Under the pieces are notes generated by a model, which was given only the letters and a program-made list of their open reading frames with translations, searched no databases and was not told the origin of the DNA. From assembly GCF_003054325.1 (NCBI RefSeq), contig NZ_QBKU01000002.1:1-64000 (forward strand): 64,000 bases of DNA, written 5' to 3'. Within the stretch, counting starts at the first letter, position 1, and every line of letters begins with the position of its first letter. Source of the stretch: Sulfitobacter mediterraneus (GTDB lineage Bacteria; Pseudomonadota; Alphaproteobacteria; Rhodobacterales; Rhodobacteraceae). Shown here in pieces: positions 98 through 9,694 of this stretch. The position numbers and the translations under genes were made by a program.

Positions 98-325
98 ATG
101 GCAGAACTGGCTGAACACGAGGGGATCGCACCATCCTATATGACGCGTGTTCTGCGGCTGACCCTGCTTTCGCCCGATATCGTCGGGGCAATCCTCGACG
201 GGGCGCATGGGTCGGAGGTGACGCTGGGGCGGCTGCTCGAGCCTTTTCCAGTTAAGTGGGAGGAGCAGCTTTTGGCTGCCGCCACTGCAGGTGCAACGCA
301 TCAAGCTAGCAGCATAGAAATTTAA
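98..325 (+). pseudogene. Remnant of recombinase C-terminal domain
   Basis: The 75-residue product contains the phrase GIAPSYMTRVLRLTLLSPDIV followed by AILDG. This is typical of the helix-turn-helix segment found at the C-terminus of alphaproteobacterial phage-type serine recombinases and in related small proteins. The catalytic resolvase domain is missing, and an in-frame TAA at 65-67 blocks any longer version. I read it as the leftover of the integration machinery of the island that follows; a free-standing small DNA-binding protein is the alternative. Confidence 0.5.
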
Positions 326-386
326 AATAAGGGATTGAATTTGAATGCCGGCATGATATCTATGATTCCAAGACAAGGGGAATCAC

Positions 387-659
387 ATGCAGACGACAAC
401 ACACATGGACACCCGGATGAACCAACGGGGCATCAATAAGGAACTGATCAACCTTGCACTGGAGTATGGTGAGCCCAAAGGCGACAAGACCGTTCTCGGC
501 CGCAAGGAATGCCACGACGCAATGCAGCAGTTGCGCCGCGAGCTTAAGGCCCTGGAGCGGGCCATGAGCAAGGGTGGGATTACCGTGGTGTCTAACGGAG
601 AGGTCCTGATCACCACCTACCGAACCGACAGTTTTTCGTCGCCGACAGCGAAAAAATAA
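387..659 (+). CDS. DUF4258-like small protein, first gene of the type I RM operon
   Basis: 90 residues. The N-terminal half has the pattern H-x3-R-M-x2-R-G-I followed by a short helix and YGEPKGDK, and the C-terminus has GITVVSNGEVLITTYR. This arrangement resembles DUF4258 proteins, small RelE-like-fold proteins sometimes found in toxin or defence loci. It ends 14 bases before the methylase-like gene on the same strand, so it is probably co-transcribed with the restriction genes. Function is unknown; a toxin or a regulator of the operon are both possible. The family link rests on motif resemblance alone. Confidence 0.6.
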   Translation: MQTTTHMDTRMNQRGINKELINLALEYGEPKGDKTVLGRKECHDAMQQLRRELKALERAMSKGGITVVSNGEVLITTYRTDSFSSPTAKK

Positions 660-673
660 GAGGCTTATAAAAA

Positions 674-2395
674 ATGCAAGAACTCTCGGCAGAAATCTGG
701 AAAGCGCTTGATGGCCTGCGTGGAGCCCTGCCGGCTCCCCACTCCATCGAGGTTCTTCTCTACGATGCCGCCCATCACATGGGGATGCCAGAAGACGAGG
801 CCAATCGCACTCATCTGGAATGGGCCTCTCTCAAAACCACAGACGCATACGCAACCCTAACAGATGCTAGGATGCGACTTCTCTCGGCGTCCCCGAGCGA
901 AAGACTTCACTCTATCGACGAGATGTTGGCGCGCTCCGCTCGCTCGGATCACGGCGTCGTATGGATCTCCCAGCTTCCAGCAAGACGCATAGCCGAACTT
1001 GCAGGCAATGCTACTCGGGTCCGCTGCGCTTTTGATGCGTCACTCCATCCAGCACTCCTGCTGAGCATGCAGGAAAGGTTTGTCCGTTTTGCATCCCAAG
1101 ACCATACAACTTGCCAACTCGCCACCATGGTTTCGACCATTATCGAAACCCGGTTAGATGTCGTTCCGGCCAATCCATTCAGCAGGACTGATGCGGGGGA
1201 GTTTGATGCCGAAATTATCATGTCTCCCTTTGGCCTTAAGATCCCCTCCGGCACAGATATCCCAAGGTCGACCCTTTCTATTCTCGGTGAGACCGAGCGC
1301 TCCAGGCGCCTCAGCAGTGATCCCGTGGCGATTGCCGACGGGCTGCAATCGCTTAGCAAGCGTATTGTGATTTCGGTGGTTGAAGGGATGATGTTTCGCG
1401 CTGTGGGCGTCGAGCCTATCGCTCGGGAAGCCTTGGTTGAATCCGGGCGCCTCGAGGCAATCTTTTCTGTGCCGGGCGGCATGGTTTTTCCTCATACGGG
1501 AGTCGCCACCAACCTGCTCGTCCTTGGTCCGAATGGGCAAACGCGACACGGTGTTCGCTTCATCAACCTCTCGGACAAACGCTTCGCCGGAAAGACCGTG
1601 CGCGGACGGCCCGAAGCGAGGCCGGAAAGCTCCTGGCTCGATGCGATTGATAAGGAACTTGCCAGTGATGAGCGCTTCGCGGCGGACGTAACCATCTCCG
1701 ACATTAAGGCGAAAGATTACAACCTGAGCTTGGAGCGATACCTACTACCGCCTGCGGTCATGGCCGTGGAGGCCTTCCTCACTGAGAGGCAAGTCCGTCC
1801 ACTGGAAGACGTTGTGGAAATGATCCGACCGCTATCTTTGGGAAAGGAAGACGACGGGGAGTTCATGATTCGCGAAGCCGTACCAGCGGATATAGGTGAT
1901 GATGAACTTTTGACCGAGCCGAAGAAAGAGACGCTGATCGAGCGAGCGCAACTCCGGAAAGCCCGAAATCAGCGCCTGATGCCCGGAGACCTACTCCTAT
2001 CGATTAAGGGCACCATCGGGGCTGTTGCATTGGTTCCCAATGATGCTGCCGTCGACGGTGATAGTGGGTTCTGGACTGCCGGGCAGTCGTTCATGGTCTT
2101 GCGCCCCCGAAAGGGAGGGAGTTCCAGCATCGCGCTCTTTGAATACCTTTCCAACAATGCAGTACGAGAAACTCTGCGTTCTCTCGCCGGTGGCGCTGGG
2201 ATTCCGACAGTCTCGATCAAGGATCTAAGGCAGTTCAGAGTCCCAGTTCTCACACCCGACGAGGAAGCTGGGATTGAAGCAAATTTCTGGGATCGGCAAA
2301 ATCAGCTTGCTCAGGTTCGAGCACGTATTGCCGAGATCGAGAAAAGCCGGAAGTCTTCCTGGCCTCACGACAAACTTCATGAAGTTGGTGCGTGA
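674..2395 (+). CDS. Degenerate N6-adenine methylase fused to a specificity (TRD) domain
   Basis: 573 residues. The middle looks like an N6-adenine DNA methylase fold, but the SAM-binding DPxxGSGG motif is absent and the catalytic NPPF/Y is replaced by MSPFG near residue 197. A later segment, VPGGMVFPHTGVATNLLVLG, matches the usual post-motif strand of type I and IIG methylases. Roughly residues 375-570 resemble an HsdS target-recognition domain: VEMIRPLSLGKE, then RLMPGDLLLSIKGTIGAV, GAGIPTVSIKDL, and a closing coiled coil of the kind that docks on HsdM. I infer a catalytically dead M-S fusion that may act as an alternative specificity or regulatory subunit for the HsdM/HsdR downstream. It lies 14 bases after the DUF4258-like gene. 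Confidence 0.6.
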   Translation: MQELSAEIWKALDGLRGALPAPHSIEVLLYDAAHHMGMPEDEANRTHLEWASLKTTDAYATLTDARMRLLSASPSERLHSIDEMLARSARSDHGVVWISQLPARRIAELAGNATRVRCAFDASLHPALLLSMQERFVRFASQDHTTCQLATMVSTIIETRLDVVPANPFSRTDAGEFDAEIIMSPFGLKIPSGTDIPRSTLSILGETERSRRLSSDPVAIADGLQSLSKRIVISVVEGMMFRAVGVEPIAREALVESGRLEAIFSVPGGMVFPHTGVATNLLVLGPNGQTRHGVRFINLSDKRFAGKTVRGRPEARPESSWLDAIDKELASDERFAADVTISDIKAKDYNLSLERYLLPPAVMAVEAFLTERQVRPLEDVVEMIRPLSLGKEDDGEFMIREAVPADIGDDELLTEPKKETLIERAQLRKARNQRLMPGDLLLSIKGTIGAVALVPNDAAVDGDSGFWTAGQSFMVLRPRKGGSSSIALFEYLSNNAVRETLRSLAGGAGIPTVSIKDLRQFRVPVLTPDEEAGIEANFWDRQNQLAQVRARIAEIEKSRKSSWPHDKLHEVGA

Positions 2396-2401
2396 AACAT
2401 C

Positions 2402-2545
2402 ATGGCATCAAACAAAACCGACATATTCCCTGTGATCGCGACTGACGGGAAACACCGCACCAAACCTTCGCCGAGGGGCTGTATGGCTCCAGGCGGCAGC
2501 GAAAAACTCTCGATTTCAATAACAAGGCTGCTCGAAACACTATGA
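2402..2545 (+). CDS. 47-residue ORF translationally coupled to hsdM
   Basis: An ATG at 2402, six bases after the stop of the methylase-like gene, opens 47 codons that end in TGA at 2543-2545. The stop overlaps the hsdM start as ATGA, which is the same coupling seen at hsdM/hsdS. The predicted peptide begins MASNKTDIFP and has no recognisable domain. Filling the gap exactly between two genes with a 4-base overlap favours a real gene or a coupling leader peptide, but the ribosome-binding site is weak. Confidence 0.45.
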   Translation: MASNKTDIFPVIATDGKHRTKPSPRGCMAPGGSEKLSISITRLLETL

Positions 2546-4935
2546 ACCAGACCTCCCACAATTCACTTGTATCTTTCATTTGGCGCATCGCGGACGACTG
2601 TCTTCGTGACGTCTACGTCCGTGGCAAATACCGTGATGTCATCCTTCCCATGGTGGTGCTGCGACGCCTCGACACCCTGCTTGAACCGACCAAGGAGGCC
2701 GTGCTTGAGGAAGTCCGGTACCAAAAGGATGAGGTCGGCGCGCTCGAACTTGACGACGAGCCGTTGAAAGACGCTTCCGGCTACGTCTTCTTCAATACCA
2801 GCCAGTGGACCCTGAAGAAACTGCACGGCACTGCGACGAATAACCAGCAGATTCTGCTGGCCAATATCGAGGACTACCTCGATGGCTTCAGCGACAACGT
2901 CAAGGAAATCGTCACTCGCTTCAAATTGCTCGAACAGATGCGCCACATGGCGGACAAGCAGGTTCTCCTCGACGTTATCGAGAAGTTCGTCTCCCCGTAC
3001 ATCAACCTGACGCCGCATGATGTTGAAGACCCCGAGGGCAACACGCTGCCGGGCCTGTCGAACCTCGGCATGGGCTATGTATTTGAGGAACTGATCCGCA
3101 AATTTAATGAAGAGAACAACGAGGAAGCTGGGGAGCACTTCACCCCGCGCGAGGTAATCCACCTCATGACGCACCTCATGTTCGACCCGATCAAGGACCA
3201 GCTTCCCCCCGTCATGACAATCTACGACCCAGCCTGCGGGTCGGGCGGCATGCTGACCGAGGCGCAAAACTACATCAAGGAACCCGGCGGGCCGATCCAG
3301 GCGCGTGGCGACGTCTATCTCTACGGCAAGGAAATCAACGACGAGACCTACGCGATCTGCAAATCGGACATGATGATCAAGGGCAACAACCCAGAAAACA
3401 TCCGCGTCGGCTCCACACTTTCCACCGATGAATTCTCGGCCAACCGCTTCGACTTCATGCTGTCCAACCCGCCCTACGGCAAAAGCTGGAACAGCGAGGT
3501 CAAGTACATCAAGGACGGCAAGGACGTCATCGACCCCCGCTTTCAGGTCGAAATGACGGACTACTGGGGCAAATCCGACACCATGGACGCCACCCCGCGC
3601 TCATCCGATGGGCAACTTCTGTTCCTGATGGAGATGGTGAATAAGATGAAGCCCGCAGCGGCCAGCCCGCTTGGCTCTCGCATCGCGTCTGTTCACAACG
3701 GCTCAAGCCTCTTCACCGGTGATGCGGGCAGCGGCGAGTCCAACATCCGCCGCTTCATCATCGAGAACGACATGCTGGACACCATCATCCAGCTGCCCAA
3801 CAACCTGTTCTACAACACTGGAATCACCACCTATATCTGGCTTCTGTCCAACGCCAAGCCCGAGGCACGCAGGGGCCGGGTGCAGCTGATCGACGCGAAC
3901 CTGCTGTTCCGCAAACTGCGCAAGAACCTGGGCGACAAGAACTGTGAATTCGCGCCGGAGCATATCGGAGCGATCACCGACGCCTACCTGAAATTCGCCC
4001 CCATCGGGCGTGAGATGGACGCCAACAATGATCCCACCGGCATCGCCGTGCAGATCTTCGACAATGAGGATTTCGGCTACCACAAGGTCACCATCGAACG
4101 GCCCGATCGACGTCGCGCGGGCTTTACCGCAGAGCGGTTGGCACATCTGCGCTTTGACAAATCCCTGCGCGAGCCGATGGAGTGGCTCTGGGCCGAACAT
4201 GGCGAAAAGGTTTTTGACGCCGGTTTCCTGAAGGGCCAGATCAAATCCATCACAGCATGGTGCGAGGAACAGGGCATCACCCTGAATGCCAAACAGCGCG
4301 GCAAGCTGATCGACCACAAGACCTGGACGGGTCTCAGCAACCTGCAAAAGACCGCGCTGCTGTTGATGCAGGACATCGGCACGGAGGAGACGGATGATTT
4401 CAACGCCTTCCGCGACGCGGTCACCAAGGCGATCAAGGCGCGCAAGATCAAGCTGACCGCAACCGAGAAGAACGCGATCCTGAATGCGGTCAGCTGGTAT
4501 GACGAGACGGCCGAGAAGGTCATCGGCAAGCGGCACAAACTGTCCTCGGGTGATCTGGACGACCTGACCACGCATCTGGGCTGTTCCACGGGCGATCTGG
4601 CGGATTTCGGGTGGTATGCCCAACCCGATGGCAGCTACCTGACCTATGAGACGGCAACCGACCTGCGCGATGCGGAAAGCGTGCCGCTCAAGGATGACAT
4701 CCACCGCTACTTCTTGGCAGAGGTCAGACCGCATGTGGAGGAAGCCTGGATCAACCTCGACTCCGTGAAGATCGGGTATGAGGTCAGCTTCAACAAGTAT
4801 TTCTACCGCCACAAACCGCTTCGTAGTCTTGAAAAAGTGACGAAGGACATTCTGGAGTTGGAAGAAAAGGCCGACGGACTGATCGCCGATATCCTCGGCG
4901 TTGAAGTGGCGACCAAGCTGGAGCCGGCGGAATGA
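2542..4935 (+). CDS. hsdM: Type I restriction-modification methyltransferase subunit HsdM
   Basis: 797 residues. An N-terminal HsdM helical domain (to about residue 150) precedes an N6-adenine methylase domain with EHFTPREV, the SAM motif DPACGSGGML near residue 229 and the catalytic NPPYGKSW near 310. Unlike the upstream fusion, all key residues are intact. A C-terminal extension of about 300 residues makes it longer than classical 500-residue HsdM. With HsdS it would methylate adenines in a bipartite site, and with HsdR it would restrict unmodified DNA. The start overlaps the 47-codon ORF and the end overlaps hsdS (ATGA at 4932). Confidence 0.95.
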   Translation: MNQTSHNSLVSFIWRIADDCLRDVYVRGKYRDVILPMVVLRRLDTLLEPTKEAVLEEVRYQKDEVGALELDDEPLKDASGYVFFNTSQWTLKKLHGTATNNQQILLANIEDYLDGFSDNVKEIVTRFKLLEQMRHMADKQVLLDVIEKFVSPYINLTPHDVEDPEGNTLPGLSNLGMGYVFEELIRKFNEENNEEAGEHFTPREVIHLMTHLMFDPIKDQLPPVMTIYDPACGSGGMLTEAQNYIKEPGGPIQARGDVYLYGKEINDETYAICKSDMMIKGNNPENIRVGSTLSTDEFSANRFDFMLSNPPYGKSWNSEVKYIKDGKDVIDPRFQVEMTDYWGKSDTMDATPRSSDGQLLFLMEMVNKMKPAAASPLGSRIASVHNGSSLFTGDAGSGESNIRRFIIENDMLDTIIQLPNNLFYNTGITTYIWLLSNAKPEARRGRVQLIDANLLFRKLRKNLGDKNCEFAPEHIGAITDAYLKFAPIGREMDANNDPTGIAVQIFDNEDFGYHKVTIERPDRRRAGFTAERLAHLRFDKSLREPMEWLWAEHGEKVFDAGFLKGQIKSITAWCEEQGITLNAKQRGKLIDHKTWTGLSNLQKTALLLMQDIGTEETDDFNAFRDAVTKAIKARKIKLTATEKNAILNAVSWYDETAEKVIGKRHKLSSGDLDDLTTHLGCSTGDLADFGWYAQPDGSYLTYETATDLRDAESVPLKDDIHRYFLAEVRPHVEEAWINLDSVKIGYEVSFNKYFYRHKPLRSLEKVTKDILELEEKADGLIADILGVEVATKLEPAE

Positions 4936-6257
4936 ACATCGCGGCCTTCCCTAAATATGAGCATTACCGCGACACTGGCAGCGACTGGATTGAAGAGTTG
5001 CCGTCTCATTGGGAGGTGCAACCAGTTAGGGCAAACTTCGCTTTCCGAAATGAAAAAAACGATCCAGTGGTCACAGAAGACATTTTGTCTTTGTCGATTG
5101 CAAACGGCGTTACCCTTTACAACGAAGAGGGCCGTGGCGGGAACAAACGCAAAGATGACCTGACCGCTTACAAGATTGCACGACCAGATGACATCGTACT
5201 GAATAGCATGAATGTCATAGTTGGCGCAGTCGGCCGGTCGAAATACTTTGGGGCTATCAGCCCTGTCTATTATGCGATGTATGCCACTAAGCCGAATACT
5301 AACATTTCGTATTATGATCGGGTTTTTTCCAACTCAGCTTTCCAGAAGGGACTGTTAAGACACGGCAAAGGTATTCTGATGAAGTTGAGCGGCACGGGAC
5401 AGCTCAATACAATCCGCATGAAGATTTCGCAGAGCGATCTAAAAAACGTTCTGTTGCCGTCTCCACCACCGGATGAACAGAAAGCCATCGTCTCGTTTCT
5501 GGATGGGAAATGCGCCAAGATTGACGAGGCGCTGCGGATCAAGGAGGAGCAGATCAAGCTCTTGGCCGAGCGCAGGCAGATCCTGATCCAACAGGCCGTC
5601 ACCCGCGGCCTGAACCCCGCCGCCCCCATGAAAGACAGCGGCATCGACTGGATCGGCCAAATCCCCGCGCATTGGGAGGTTCGCCGAAATTTCACATTGT
5701 TTCGGGAAACCAAGAAGTCTGGGAACGCAACACTCCCGGTCCTCTCGGTTTCAATCCATAGCGGCGTTTCCAAGGAAGAACTGAGCGAGGAAGACAATAT
5801 TCGGTCCATTGTGAAAATCGAAGACCGAACATCCTACAAGGAGGTTCTGCGCGGAGATGTCGCCTACAACATGATGCGGGCATGGCAAGGTGGTATTGGC
5901 GCAGTTCATACGCATGGGATGGTAAGCCCAGCATACGTGGTTGCCCGCCCGATAGTCACGTTGGCCGCCGACTATTTCGAGCTGCTCTATCGGACACCAG
6001 CTTTCATTGCTCAGATGGATGCCGGATCAAAAGGGATTACGGATTTTCGAAAGCGGCTCTATTGGGATGATTTCAGGAATCTCTTCACGATTGCCCCTCC
6101 TCTGGACGAGCAAAAGCAGATTATTCAGTATTCTGACGAGCTATCAGAGAAAATTGGCAAAGCGATTTCAATCAAGGAAGACCAGATCGCCGCGCTCAAG
6201 GAATACAAAACGAGCCTGATCAACGCGGCCGTTACTGGTAAGATCAAAGTCATTTGA
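4932..6257 (+). CDS. hsdS: Type I restriction-modification specificity subunit HsdS
   Basis: 441 residues with the two-fold layout of HsdS: two target-recognition domains, each opened by a matching phrase (GSDWIEELPSHWEV near residue 17 and GIDWIGQIPAHWEV near 237), and two conserved helical spacers (around LLAERRQILIQQAVTRGL and at the C-terminus, LKEYKTSLINAAVTGKI). It determines which bipartite sequence the complex recognises; the site cannot be read from sequence. It overlaps hsdM by four bases and ends ten bases before hsdR. Confidence 0.95.
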   Translation: MNIAAFPKYEHYRDTGSDWIEELPSHWEVQPVRANFAFRNEKNDPVVTEDILSLSIANGVTLYNEEGRGGNKRKDDLTAYKIARPDDIVLNSMNVIVGAVGRSKYFGAISPVYYAMYATKPNTNISYYDRVFSNSAFQKGLLRHGKGILMKLSGTGQLNTIRMKISQSDLKNVLLPSPPPDEQKAIVSFLDGKCAKIDEALRIKEEQIKLLAERRQILIQQAVTRGLNPAAPMKDSGIDWIGQIPAHWEVRRNFTLFRETKKSGNATLPVLSVSIHSGVSKEELSEEDNIRSIVKIEDRTSYKEVLRGDVAYNMMRAWQGGIGAVHTHGMVSPAYVVARPIVTLAADYFELLYRTPAFIAQMDAGSKGITDFRKRLYWDDFRNLFTIAPPLDEQKQIIQYSDELSEKIGKAISIKEDQIAALKEYKTSLINAAVTGKIKVI

Positions 6258-6267
6258 GGGGGCGGTC

Positions 6268-9200
6268 ATGAATTACACAGTCAGCAATACCAAGGAAATC
6301 GCGCTGGAACAGGCCATTGAACGGCACCTAACCGGCACGACGACAGAAGACCTCAAAGACGGCGGTGTGGAATCCGGCCCCTACCACATCGGCCGCTCCA
6401 CCGACTTCGATGCCGCCCTCGCGCTCGACACAGCCCTGTTCTGGGAGTTCCTTGAGGCCACGCAAGGCAAAGCGCTCGAAAAACTGAAAACCCGCAATCC
6501 CGCCGACTGGCAGGCAAAGATCCTTGGCCAGTTCGACAAACTGGTAAAGCGAAAGGGCGTGCTGCACCTGCTGAAAAAGGGCCTGCCAGTCGATGACGCG
6601 CATCTGACGCTCATGTACCCCGCGCCGCTGGCAAGCTCCGCGCAAAAGGTCCACGACAACTTTGCCGCCAATATCTGGAGCATTACACGCCAGGTGCACC
6701 ATAGCCTCGCCAACCCAAACGAATCCGTCGACATGGTGCTGTTCCTGAACGGCCTGCCCATCGTCACGCTGGAGTTGAAAGTCACCTCGACCTCCGCCCC
6801 GCAGACCGCGCGGTATCACGGGCAAAAGCAGTACCGGGAGCGCGACGCTACGCAACCGCTGATGCAGTTCGGGCGTGCCCTGGTCCACATGACCGCCGAT
6901 ACCGACGAGGTCTGGATGGCAACCAAGCTGTCCGGTGCATCAACGTGGTTCCTGCCGTTCAACAAAGGCTACAACGAGGGCGCAGGCAATCCGCCGAACC
7001 CGAATGGTCACAAAACGGCGTATCTCTGGGAAGAGGTGTTTCAGCCCGCCAGCCTTGCTGGGATCATCCAGCATTTCGTGCTGCTGGAAGGCGGTAAAAC
7101 GGATCCCCTTGCGAAAAAGACACTGATCTTTCCGCGGTACCAGCAACTCGACGTCGTGCGCAAATTGCTGGATCACACCGCTACGCATGGCGTGGGGCAA
7201 AGCTACCTGATCCAGCACTCGGCCGGATCGGGCAAGTCGAACAGCATCACATGGGCCGCCTATCAGCTGATCGAGAGCTATCCGACGAGTGCGGACCTGC
7301 CCGGCGCGCGGGCGCTGGACACGTCGCTCTTCGACAGCGTGATCGTGGTGACCGACCGCCGGCTGCTGGACAAGCAGTTGCGCGACAACATCAGCGACTT
7401 CTCGGAAGTGAAGAACATCGTCGCCCCGGCAGTGCGGTCAGCAGATCTGAAAGCGGCGCTGGAGAACGGCAAGAAGATCATTATCACGACCATCCAGAAG
7501 TTCCCCTTCATCATCGACGGCATCGCGGACATGAGCGACAAGCGCTTTGCTGTGATCATCGACGAGGCCCACAGTGGTCAGAGCGGCCTTGCTCACGACA
7601 AGATGAACCAGGCCATGGGCGGCGGCGAAGACCCGGACGCGGATGACCCGCAGGACAAGATCCTCGCGGCAATGCAGGCGCGGAAGATGCGTGGCAATGC
7701 CTCCTATTTCGCATTCACCGCAACGCCAAAGAACACGACGCTGGAAAAGTTCGGGACAAAGCAGCCCGATGGCAGCTTCAAGCCGTTCCACCTCTACAGC
7801 ATGAAGCAGGCGATCGAGGAGGGCTTCATCCTCGATGTTCTGGCCAATTACACGACCTATAAGGGCTATTACGAGATCCAGAAGTCCATCGAAGACAATC
7901 CGCTTTTCGACACGGCAAAGGCACAAAAGAAGCTCCGCGCCTATGTCGAGAGCAGCCAGCAGACGATCAACACCAAGGCCGAGATCATGGTCGAGGATTT
8001 CATGGACAATGTCGTGAATGCCAAGAAACTGCGTGGCAAGGCGAAGGGCATGATCGTCACCCAGAACATCGAGATGGCGATCCGCTATTACAGGGCCGTT
8101 CAAGCGGAACTGGCAAAGCGCGGCAACCCGTTCAAGGCCCTGATCGCTTTCTCTGGAGAAAAAGAGGTCGACGGGATCAAGTACACTGAGGCCGACATGA
8201 ACAGCTTCCCAGAAGACAAGACGCGGAAGGAGTTCGACAAGGACGAGTTCCGCCTTCTGGTCGTGGCGAATAAATACCTGACCGGCTTCGACCAGCCGAA
8301 GCTCTGCGCCATGTACGTCGATAAGAAGTTGCAATCCGTTCTTGCAGTTCAGGCATTGTCACGCCTCAACCGGTCGGCACCAAAATTAGGTAAGCGCACC
8401 GAAGATTTGTTCGTGCTCGATTTTTTCAACTCCACCGACGACATCAAGGCCGCCTTCGATCCATTCTTCACCGTCACAACGCTTTCAGAGGCAACCGACG
8501 TAAATGTTCTGCATGAGTTGAAGGCTACGCTCGACGAGGCAGGCGCCTACGAGTGGTCCGAAGTCGAGGAGTTCTGCACCCGCTTTTTTGATGAGGAAGA
8601 TGCCCAGACGCTCAGCCCCCTGATTGACGCTGCGGCGGAGCGGTTCAACGTCGAGTTGGATCTCGAGGAAAAAGATAAGATCGACTACAAGATCAAAGCC
8701 AAGCAGTTCGTGAAGGTCTACGGCCAGATGGCATCCATAATGCCCTTCGAGGTGTTGGCCTGGGAGAAGCTGTTCTGGTTCCTTAAGTTCCTCATCCCAA
8801 AACTGAAGATTCAGGATCCGAACCAAGATGCGCTTGACGAGCTGCTCGAAGCCGTCGATCTCTCTTCCTACGGCTTAGAGCGCACAAAGCTGAACCACGT
8901 CATCGGCCTGGACGCTTCCGAGTCAGAACTCGAACCGCAAAACCCCAACCCGCGCGGTTATCGTGAGGGCGAAGTCCAGGAAGATCCGCTTGAGGAGATC
9001 ATTCGAAGCTTCAATGAACGCTGGTTTCAAGGTTGGAGCGCGACCCCGGAAGAGCAACGCGTTAAGTTTCTAAACATCGTCGACAGCGTGCAGGCACACC
9101 CCGACTACGACGAAAAGTTTAGCGACAATCCGGACCCATTTTCGCGGGATCTAGCATTCGAGAAAATCATGAAAGACGTCATGTTGCGGCGCAGAAAAGA

Positions 9201-9303
9201 AGAGCTCGAGCTGTACAAACTCCACTCCCAGGACCCGTCATTCAAAGCCTCATTGTACCAGAGCATCAAGGAGATGCTGAGGAACAGCACTCAGCGCGAC
9301 TAG
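6268..9303 (+). CDS. hsdR: Type I restriction endonuclease subunit HsdR
   Basis: 1011 residues. The N-terminal nuclease domain carries D and E-x-K in VDMVLFLNG...VTLELKV (about residues 152-170), followed by the QY motif. The motor domain has a Walker A HSAGSGKSN near 320, VVTDRRLLDKQL, a DEAH box in VIIDEAHSGQSG near 432, and FTATPKNTT. It would translocate DNA and cut it when HsdM/HsdS find an unmethylated site. It is full length, closes the operon, and is followed by a non-coding stretch up to the tRNA gene. Confidence 0.95.
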   Translation: MNYTVSNTKEIALEQAIERHLTGTTTEDLKDGGVESGPYHIGRSTDFDAALALDTALFWEFLEATQGKALEKLKTRNPADWQAKILGQFDKLVKRKGVLHLLKKGLPVDDAHLTLMYPAPLASSAQKVHDNFAANIWSITRQVHHSLANPNESVDMVLFLNGLPIVTLELKVTSTSAPQTARYHGQKQYRERDATQPLMQFGRALVHMTADTDEVWMATKLSGASTWFLPFNKGYNEGAGNPPNPNGHKTAYLWEEVFQPASLAGIIQHFVLLEGGKTDPLAKKTLIFPRYQQLDVVRKLLDHTATHGVGQSYLIQHSAGSGKSNSITWAAYQLIESYPTSADLPGARALDTSLFDSVIVVTDRRLLDKQLRDNISDFSEVKNIVAPAVRSADLKAALENGKKIIITTIQKFPFIIDGIADMSDKRFAVIIDEAHSGQSGLAHDKMNQAMGGGEDPDADDPQDKILAAMQARKMRGNASYFAFTATPKNTTLEKFGTKQPDGSFKPFHLYSMKQAIEEGFILDVLANYTTYKGYYEIQKSIEDNPLFDTAKAQKKLRAYVESSQQTINTKAEIMVEDFMDNVVNAKKLRGKAKGMIVTQNIEMAIRYYRAVQAELAKRGNPFKALIAFSGEKEVDGIKYTEADMNSFPEDKTRKEFDKDEFRLLVVANKYLTGFDQPKLCAMYVDKKLQSVLAVQALSRLNRSAPKLGKRTEDLFVLDFFNSTDDIKAAFDPFFTVTTLSEATDVNVLHELKATLDEAGAYEWSEVEEFCTRFFDEEDAQTLSPLIDAAAERFNVELDLEEKDKIDYKIKAKQFVKVYGQMASIMPFEVLAWEKLFWFLKFLIPKLKIQDPNQDALDELLEAVDLSSYGLERTKLNHVIGLDASESELEPQNPNPRGYREGEVQEDPLEEIIRSFNERWFQGWSATPEEQRVKFLNIVDSVQAHPDYDEKFSDNPDPFSRDLAFEKIMKDVMLRRRKEELELYKLHSQDPSFKASLYQSIKEMLRNSTQRD

Positions 9304-9604: not shown

Positions 9605-9694
9605 TGGCGGAGCGACAGGGATTCGAACCCTGGAGACGGTCTCCCGCCTACACACTTTCCAGGCGTGCGCCTTCGACCACTCGGCCACCGCTCC
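9605..9694 (-). tRNA. tRNA-Ser (anticodon GGA)
   Basis: Read on the minus strand the gene starts GGAGCGG and ends CGCTCCG with an encoded CCA at 9605-9607. The acceptor stem pairs over 7 bp with one G-U. The anticodon loop CTGGAAA gives GGA, serving UCC/UCU serine codons. The long variable arm (class II) and the T arm GGTTCGAATCC are evident. The 3' end faces the restriction island, the usual orientation for a tRNA used as an integration target. Confidence 0.95.

What the first reader, a model, noticed from the sequence alone, without database searches (positions are those of the whole stretch)
387..9303. Type I restriction operon with a catalytically degenerate methylase-TRD partner
The 573-residue product upstream of hsdM looks like a methylase joined to an HsdS-like recognition domain. 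It lacks the SAM motif, and has MSPFG where NPPF/Y should be. HsdM, HsdS and HsdR downstream are intact. An inactive M-S fusion could be a second specificity subunit, a decoy, or a sensor that regulates restriction; the DUF4258-like gene and the 47-codon ORF are in the same operon. I do not know of a described system of this arrangement.
Basis: partly seen in the sequence, partly recalled or inferred. Interest (0 to 1): 0.75.

Follow-up and report, generated by a model that had tools for sequence, protein, structure and literature searches.

The report
Dead methylase paired with toxin-like gene
In front of an ordinary DNA-restriction operon sits a swappable two-gene cassette, a small toxin-like protein plus a DNA methylase that has lost its catalytic residues, which probably acts as a switch or guard for bacterial immunity rather than as an enzyme.

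Summary
The 573-residue protein (674-2395) has the fold of a whole HsdM fused to half an HsdS but lacks the cofactor motif and the catalytic Asn. The loss is family-wide: 0 of 23 members keep either motif, against 19 of 20 (motif IV) and 18 of 20 (motif I) neighbouring HsdM; purifying selection (dN/dS 0.10-0.35) marks a maintained pseudoenzyme. Two corrections: the 47-codon ORF is not conserved, and the partner is the DUF4258-like gene rather than HsdM or HsdS. The two diverge together and are exchanged as a cassette between unrelated hsdMSR operons. The recognition domain is the protein's most conserved part and does not follow HsdS, against a second specificity subunit. A short element recurs before DUF4258 and at the junction in 16 of 23 nearer loci, not significantly in the window, and in 0 of 8 distant loci. 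Best reading, inferred: a toxin-antitoxin-like control cassette with the dead methylase as DNA-binding partner. Toxicity, binding and trigger are untested; 6 of 12 plasmid loci lack DUF4258. I found no description in the papers searched.

The parts
324..338 (+). Upstream copy of the paired element (AAAATAAGGGATTGA), 49-63 bp before the DUF4258 start
   Evidence: Only site in the 64-kb window with up to 1 mismatch; exact at the same place in L076-L078, L080-L083 and L031, with a change in L079 and in L040
387..659 (+). DUF4258-like gene, 90 aa, candidate toxin-like partner
   Evidence: Pfam DUF4258 22.3 bits, cut-off 25; 14 columns invariant in the 25-row alignment, among them H6, R10, R14, K62 and Y78; model pLDDT 90.5
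653..666 (+). Weak second copy of the element at the junction (AAAATAAGAGGCTT)
   Evidence: Not significant in the window itself (209 of 1000 controls as good); stronger in L077, L078, L080-L083, L031 and L040
674..2395 (+). Pseudo-methylase: HsdM fold (residues 1-360) fused to one HsdS half (residues about 366-560)
   Evidence: Model pLDDT 86.8, pTM 0.80; HsdM chain 7vru_A Z 28.4, rmsd 3.4, 349 aligned; single recognition domain 8vsq_A Z 19.2, rmsd 2.7, 195 aligned
1007..1057 (+). Region of the lost cofactor motif I (residues 112-128)
   Evidence: Alignments; motif pattern absent in 23 of 23 family members, window included
1220..1234 (+). Degenerate motif IV, MSPFG (residues 183-187), in place of NPPF/Y
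   Evidence: [ND]PP[FYW] absent in 23 of 23 family members, window included
1769..2353 (+). Single HsdS-type recognition domain (residues 366-560), the most conserved part of the protein
   Evidence: Mean pairwise identity 49% against 31% for residues 1-229 and 44% for 230-365, 15 loci; Methylase_S matched in 18 of 19 members at E <= 0.01
2542..4935 (+). hsdM with both catalytic motifs
   Evidence: PADLOC MTase_I E 1.5e-259; DPACGSG at 229, NPPY at 309
4932..6257 (+). hsdS
   Evidence: PADLOC Specificity_I E 3.8e-112
6268..9303 (+). hsdR
   Evidence: Pfam SWI2_SNF2 (86.3 bits) and HSDR_N (46.2 bits), both above cut-off; TIGR00348 E 4.1e-57, below its curated cut-off

Best explanation
The first two genes form a conserved, exchangeable two-gene cassette that rides with type I restriction operons, usually in front of them. 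Shown: the second gene is a maintained HsdM-plus-half-HsdS protein without the catalytic motifs; it co-diverges with the DUF4258-like gene and moves with it between unrelated hsdMSR operons. Inferred: the pair works like a toxin-antitoxin module. The DUF4258-like protein would be a small RelE/ParE-type effector. The dead methylase would be its antitoxin: it would hold the effector and, through its conserved recognition domain, bind the short element before the DUF4258 gene and at the junction, repressing the cassette and perhaps the hsd genes behind it. Loss or capture of the dead methylase would then free the effector. The trigger is unknown.
For: Partner: of 29 loci found with the DUF4258-like alignment, 21 have the fused pseudo-methylase directly downstream and 2 have it as two separate genes (L093, L096); 6 have none. 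The query was built from loci that have the pair, so this set leans towards it. In a survey of the order, the 6 genomes with a strong DUF4258 match (E <= 3.2e-30) all have the pseudo-methylase beside it; the 6 with weak matches show none in the 1.5-kb flanks held (380 genomes). Co-divergence: rho 0.80 for DUF4258 with pseudo-methylase, 0.73 with HsdM held constant (15 loci). Exchange: L077 and L078 share 94% and 90% identity in the cassette but 44% in HsdM; window and L084 share 80% in HsdM but 37% in the pseudo-methylase; trees conflict. Selection: dN/dS 0.10-0.35 for the pseudo-methylase and 0.05-0.28 for DUF4258 in 10 pairs, some of them sharing loci. Toxin side: DUF4258 is listed among RelE/ParE-superfamily toxin families (PMC11980606, passages), and in E. 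coli its presumed antitoxins lie strictly downstream (PMC10790755, passages), as here. Other DUF4258-like genes lie next to a helix-turn-helix gene (L120; below cut-off in L121, weak in L118) or a weakly ribbon-helix-helix-like one (L110, L124). DNA element: paired copies at the two sites, the sequence differing between clades but matching within a locus.
Against: No toxicity, binding or repression was tested. The DUF4258 model had no PDB match with E <= 0.001 and a best VIA Z of 2.6, so the RelE fold is not shown here. Of 12 plasmid loci examined, 6 pseudo-methylases have no DUF4258-like ORF in the stretch held (Aliivibrio, two Lactococcus, Salimicrobium, Annamia, Geminocystis), and L043 is an orphan with neither DUF4258 nor hsd genes found. 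Other DUF4258-like genes are followed by proteins with no antitoxin look (LRAT, Ubiq_cyt_C_chap). Distances of the cassette and of the hsd genes also correlate (rho 0.47-0.65, p 0.001), and a link of the pseudo-methylase to HsdM and HsdR remains with DUF4258 held constant (0.33, p 0.01; 0.37, p 0.004). The paired element is not significant in 7 of 23 nearer loci, the window among them, nor in any of 8 distant loci. The promoter scan found no site at the DUF4258 start.
Confidence: 0.42

Rival explanations
1. A transcriptional controller cassette without a toxin: the pseudo-methylase, alone or with DUF4258, binds the element upstream and times expression of hsdMSR, as C proteins do for type II systems and RptR for type I.
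For: Element before the DUF4258 gene and at the junction, changing in step between clades; hsdM seen behind the cassette in 19 of 23 loci; RptR shows that a head gene can repress a type I island (PMC12255303, abstract and passages); methylases that also repress are known (PMC12707154, passages).
Against: In Oscillatoria the cassette lies downstream of the hsd genes; Aromatoleum and Novosphingobium (L097) have a different gene order behind it; in L043, L087 and L093 no hsd gene was found in the stretch held.
Confidence: 0.27
2. A pseudo-subunit of the modification enzyme: the dead methylase pairs with HsdM/HsdS and alters specificity or activity (second specificity subunit).
For: HsdM fold with the N-terminal helical domain and an HsdS half with its long helix; PacII, with two different M subunits, is among the best structural matches; partial rho 0.33 with HsdM given DUF4258.
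Against: Pairs of loci with near-identical cassettes (L077/L078, L090/L094) have HsdM only 44% identical; recognition domain 96% identical between L080 and L082, whose HsdS share 37%; no preference for its own HsdS (p 0.84).
Confidence: 0.12
3. A reader of DNA state: the retained PPF loop accepts a flipped base without methylating it, so the protein reports methylated or hypermodified sites.
For: The catalytic Asn and the cofactor loop are lost while the loop ends in PFG in 20 of the 23 sequences aligned; the base-stacking role of this loop is recalled, not tested.
Against: L088, L089 and L102 have PMLG instead, so the loop is not strictly kept; nothing here shows base flipping.
Confidence: 0.1
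4. A decaying relic of a type I gene with no function.
For: Catalytic motifs lost.
Against: dN/dS well under 1 in 10 of 10 pairs; full-length frames and the same loss in members from several phyla.
Confidence: 0.03

Closest known systems
HsdM of type I and related systems (EcoR124I, StySJI M, PacII M)
   Same: Fold over residues 1-360, Z 24-28
   Different: Cofactor motif and catalytic Asn missing in all 23 family members tested; fused to an HsdS half
HsdS / half-HsdS (8vsq Esub1, 1yf2)
   Same: One recognition domain with a long helix, Z 19.2 and 16.9
   Different: Only one domain; the most conserved part of its protein
Single-chain adenine methylases with a recognition domain (CamA, M.TaqI, 7eew)
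   Same: Methylase plus recognition domain in one chain
   Different: Those are titled methylases, in complexes with DNA, cofactor or inhibitors; this one lacks the motifs
DUF4258 toxins of the RelE/ParE superfamily
   Same: Sequence family; presumed partner gene directly downstream
   Different: Partner is a dead methylase, not a small antitoxin; long helix between the two pairs of strands
PrrC with EcoPrrI (restriction guardian)
   Same: An accessory effector coupled to a type I system (PMC12707154, passages)
   Different: None of the annotated genes here is a PrrC by the family searches made; coupling is only proposed
RptR
   Same: Small first gene of a type I island (PMC12255303, abstract)
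   Different: Described as all alpha-helical, unlike the DUF4258 model; its TAGCTA site is absent from window 150-400

Membership tests
HsdM (type I methylase subunit) | Cofactor motif I and catalytic N/D-PP-F/Y/W | tested here: not met
   0 of 23 pseudo-methylases for either; 18 and 19 of 20 neighbouring HsdM
HsdM (type I methylase subunit) | HsdM fold with N-terminal helical domain | tested here: met
   7vru_A Z 28.4, rmsd 3.4, 349 aligned, model 1-360
HsdS (specificity subunit) | Two recognition domains | tested here: not met
   One domain only, residues about 366-560
DUF4258 (PF14076) | Curated Pfam score | tested here: inconclusive
   Window protein 22.3 bits against 25; 20 of 25 members match at E <= 0.01, best 2.6e-7
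Type II toxin-antitoxin module | BECR (RelE/ParE) fold of the toxin | tested here: inconclusive
   No informative match of the model
Type II toxin-antitoxin module | Two adjacent genes inherited as a pair | tested here: met
   In the loci near the window; not in 6 of 12 plasmid loci
Type II toxin-antitoxin module | Toxicity neutralised by the partner | not testable with these tools
   Needs expression
Type II toxin-antitoxin module | Operator bound by the antitoxin | tested here: inconclusive
   Paired element in 16 of 23 nearer loci and 0 of 8 distant loci; binding untested
MADS defence system | MAD2/MAD5 curated scores | tested here: not met
   NF047740 (MAD5) 35.6 bits against 400; MAD2 not matched at E <= 1 by this protein in NCBIfam
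Type I restriction-modification system (hsdMSR behind the cassette) | M, S and R subunits in one operon | tested here: met
   activity not tested

The most novel reading that the evidence does not exclude
A restriction guardian with a decoy: the dead methylase imitates the methylase core of a type I enzyme so that anti-restriction DNA mimics (Ocr, ArdA), which bind that core, also capture it, release the DUF4258 effector and abort infection. Because the cassette is not tied to one HsdM or HsdS, it could guard any type I system it lands beside.
Probability: 0.14. Interest if true: 0.87.

Novelty: new variant of a known kind. Interest (0 to 1): 0.62.

Why it matters
If right, a broken-looking methylase in front of restriction operons is a working switch that travels as a cassette. 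It would give DUF4258, a family that 'remain[s] undescribed in the literature' (PMC11980606, passage), a partner and a context, and it would make testable whether dead methylases serve as antitoxins, controllers or decoys for anti-restriction proteins. Annotation that names these genes 'N-6 DNA methylase' would also be corrected.

Tried and rejected
Second specificity subunit: set aside on the uncoupled evolution and the own-HsdS test. The 47-codon ORF as an operon member: set aside, not conserved in L076-L079. Relic: set aside on dN/dS. Phage anti-restriction origin: no DUF4258-like match in 50,697 phage records at E <= 0.01 and no pseudo-methylase relative in the viral contigs by the pattern scan (which reaches close relatives only). 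Class survey with the mixed alignment A1: 36 of 337 genomes matched, but apart from the window's own genome no listed match covered both halves of the protein; A1 holds a Lactococcus row that draws in ordinary HsdM. The first genome-contig scan with the single protein found nothing. Plasmid hits: 32 records matched the 573-aa protein; I looked at 13, of which L128 (Ligilactobacillus) was set aside because its methylase keeps a DPP motif, leaving 12. No RelE/ParE chain is among the VIA rows for DUF4258. L093 and L096 (split genes) were left out of the counts; L096 was not put to the paired-element test. The clades were named after the distance table had been seen; one tested group (L088, L089, L091) agrees between both trees. 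The repeat finder on window 280-720 did not return the junction copy.

Only 8 papers of the library hold the word DUF4258. Of these I read passages of three (PMC11980606, PMC10790755, PMC8790059); the other five I saw only in the listing. Of PMC12255303 I saw the outline with abstract and passages, of PMC12707154 passages. Most subscription papers and all bioRxiv preprints are outside the library.
Full report
What is there. The window starts at the first base of its contig. Five genes follow on one strand: a DUF4258-like gene (387-659), a 573-residue methylase-like protein (674-2395), hsdM, hsdS and hsdR (to 9303). The three hsd genes match their families and HsdM keeps both catalytic motifs. 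The methylase-like protein matches Pfam N6_Mtase in its C-terminal half only, and one HsdS-type domain.

Structure. The predicted model of the 573-residue protein (pLDDT 86.8, pTM 0.80) matches HsdM subunits over residues 1-360 (7vru_A Z 28.4, rmsd 3.4, 349 aligned; 3lkd_A Z 28.4, rmsd 3.0, 342 aligned) and a single recognition domain over 360-569 (8vsq_A Z 19.2, rmsd 2.7, 195 aligned).

Dead active site. Motif IV reads MSPFG in the window; the aligned family members have a hydrophobic or other residue before [SAP]PFG, or PMLG in L088, L089 and L102, and the cofactor loop has no glycine signature. None of 23 pseudo-methylases (window included) has [ND]PP[FYW] or the motif I pattern, while 19 and 18 of 20 neighbouring HsdM do; L092, a 146-residue fragment at a contig end, lacks both and L078 lacks the motif I pattern. 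Five more distant plasmid-borne members (Aromatoleum, Aliivibrio, Oscillatoria, Sulfuricurvum, Lactococcus) also lack the Asn. Lactococcus keeps a motif I-like DATAGTAG but has VPPFG, and two unfused forms have SQPPLG and STPPFG, so the Asn is missing even where the cofactor loop is less decayed. Selection looks purifying: dN/dS 0.10-0.35 in 10 of 10 pairs, which are not all independent, and dS is near saturation for window/L076.

The partner is DUF4258. A scan of genome contigs with the DUF4258-like alignment gave 29 loci. The fused pseudo-methylase lies directly downstream in 21, as two genes in L093 and L096, and not at all in 6 (L098-L101, L103, L104). The query alignment came from loci that have the pair, so this sample leans towards it. 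Of the 23 with it, 19 have an hsdM seen behind it; of the other four, L096 and L102 are cut by a contig end, L087 is followed by ORFs that look to me like IS66 transposition genes (by eye), and L093 has none in the stretch held. In a survey of the order with the pseudo-methylase, 7 of 390 genomes held it full length; 6 of these 7 have DUF4258 and hsd genes beside it, the seventh (L043) has neither. From the other side, 12 of 380 genomes had a DUF4258-like match; the 6 strong ones have the pseudo-methylase beside them and the 6 weak ones show none in their 1.5-kb flanks. The two surveys drew on the same group, so they share these six genomes. On plasmids the link is looser: of 12 pseudo-methylase loci examined out of 32 records, 6 have a DUF4258-like neighbour (Roseovarius, Aromatoleum, Roseomonas, Oscillatoria, Sulfuricurvum, Synechococcus) and 6 have none in the stretch held (Aliivibrio, two Lactococcus, Salimicrobium, Annamia, Geminocystis).

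A cassette that is exchanged. In 15 loci with all five genes, distances of DUF4258 and pseudo-methylase correlate at rho 0.80 and those of the three hsd genes at 0.80-0.87 among themselves, but at 0.47-0.65 across the two groups; all of these have p 0.001. Without the outlier L097 the first value is 0.72 and pseudo-methylase with HsdM 0.51. With HsdM held constant the first link stays at 0.73 (p 0.0005); pseudo-methylase with HsdS given HsdM is 0.04 (p 0.39); weaker links with HsdM (0.33, p 0.01) and HsdR (0.37, p 0.004) given DUF4258 remain. Examples: L077/L078 share 94% (DUF4258) and 90% (pseudo-methylase) but 44% in HsdM and 37% in HsdR; L090/L094 share 85% and 80% but 44% in HsdM; window/L084 share 80% in HsdM and 78% in HsdR but 37% in the pseudo-methylase. 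Trees conflict: the pseudo-methylase data reject window+L084+L086 (p-AU 7.9e-5), and HsdM data reject L077+L078 (1.6e-5) and L090+L094 (4.3e-6) (groups chosen after seeing the distances; simple model without mixture).

The recognition domain is not matched to HsdS. It is the most conserved part of the pseudo-methylase (49% mean identity; residues 1-229 31%; 230-365 44%; whole HsdS 27%); L080 and L082 have it 96% identical with HsdS at 37%. It resembles its own operon's HsdS no more than others (sum 324.6 bits against 336.4 +/- 11.8 permuted, p 0.84). It therefore probably recognises something constant.

A paired DNA element. In loci nearer the window a 14-16 bp element stands upstream of the DUF4258 start and again, same strand, at the junction with the pseudo-methylase. 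Its sequence differs between clades but is shared within a locus: AAATAAGGGnnTGA; [AG]TTA[AT]CTnCTGn[CT]TTT; [AG]GTA[AG]Cn[CT]CTGCCT. Against 1000 random stretches of the same locus, 16 of 23 nearer loci (pseudo-methylase about 30% or more identical to the window's) fall at or below 5%, 8 of them at or below 0.3%; the window (209/1000), L076, L079, L088, L091, L042 and L102 do not; none of 8 more distant loci do (L032, L034, L035, L037, L093, L095, L097, L107). L031, L040 and L080-L083 are close relatives, so the number of independent cases is nearer four clades. This is a candidate operator pair; binding is untested.

What DUF4258 may be. The 25-row alignment has 14 invariant columns, including H6, R10, R14, K62 and Y78. 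The model is confident (pLDDT 90.5, pTM 0.66: two helices, a strand pair, a 23-residue helix, a strand pair) but has no useful PDB match. The assignment to the RelE/ParE superfamily rests on PMC11980606 (passages). Elsewhere DUF4258-like genes sit beside a helix-turn-helix gene (L120; below the Pfam cut-off in L121, weak in L118), weak ribbon-helix-helix-like proteins (L110, L124), LRAT proteins (L109, L126), a Ubiq_cyt_C_chap protein (L105) or proteins without a Pfam match (L103, L106, L108, L125). PMC10790755 (passages) reports presumed antitoxins of DUF4258 strictly downstream in E. coli; in PMC11980606 the listed order for the family is antitoxin first, which does not fit the order here.

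Reading. The facts support a maintained, exchangeable pair that travels with type I operons. The toxin-antitoxin-like mechanism is the best fit I can name but is inference; a controller without a toxin is the nearest rival. The boldest reading not excluded is a guardian whose dead methylase is bait for anti-restriction DNA mimics. Guardian systems that sense inhibited restriction are known (PMC12707154, passages), and Ocr- or ArdA-bound methylases are among the structural matches, which shows only that the core is of the kind such mimics bind.

Noticed in passing
window 9605-9694 (-): tRNA-Ser (gga) lies about 300 bp behind the end of hsdR, so the operon may be the edge of a tRNA-linked island.
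   Followed up: no
window 98-325: 75-codon ORF upstream of the cassette with a weak ParB/RepB-like match far below cut-off; the contig starts at window base 1, so it may be cut.
   Followed up: no
L109 8001-9048, L126 3531-4529: DUF4258-like gene followed by an LRAT-domain protein on Moraxella and Acinetobacter plasmids, in L109 next to a gene annotated as viperin family: another DUF4258 pair in a possible defence setting.
   Followed up: partly
L107 9001-11819: Synechococcus plasmid: DUF4258-like, pseudo-methylase, then a Swt1-like HEPN protein instead of hsd genes.
   Followed up: partly
L093 10351-12394; L096 825-2688: Unfused form: half-HsdS gene and pseudo-HsdM gene next to DUF4258, once after and once before it.
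   Followed up: partly
L129 6860-9113: Salimicrobium plasmid: a gene annotated DUF2325, not DUF4258, precedes the pseudo-methylase and hsdMSR, with an abortive-infection gene behind.
   Followed up: no
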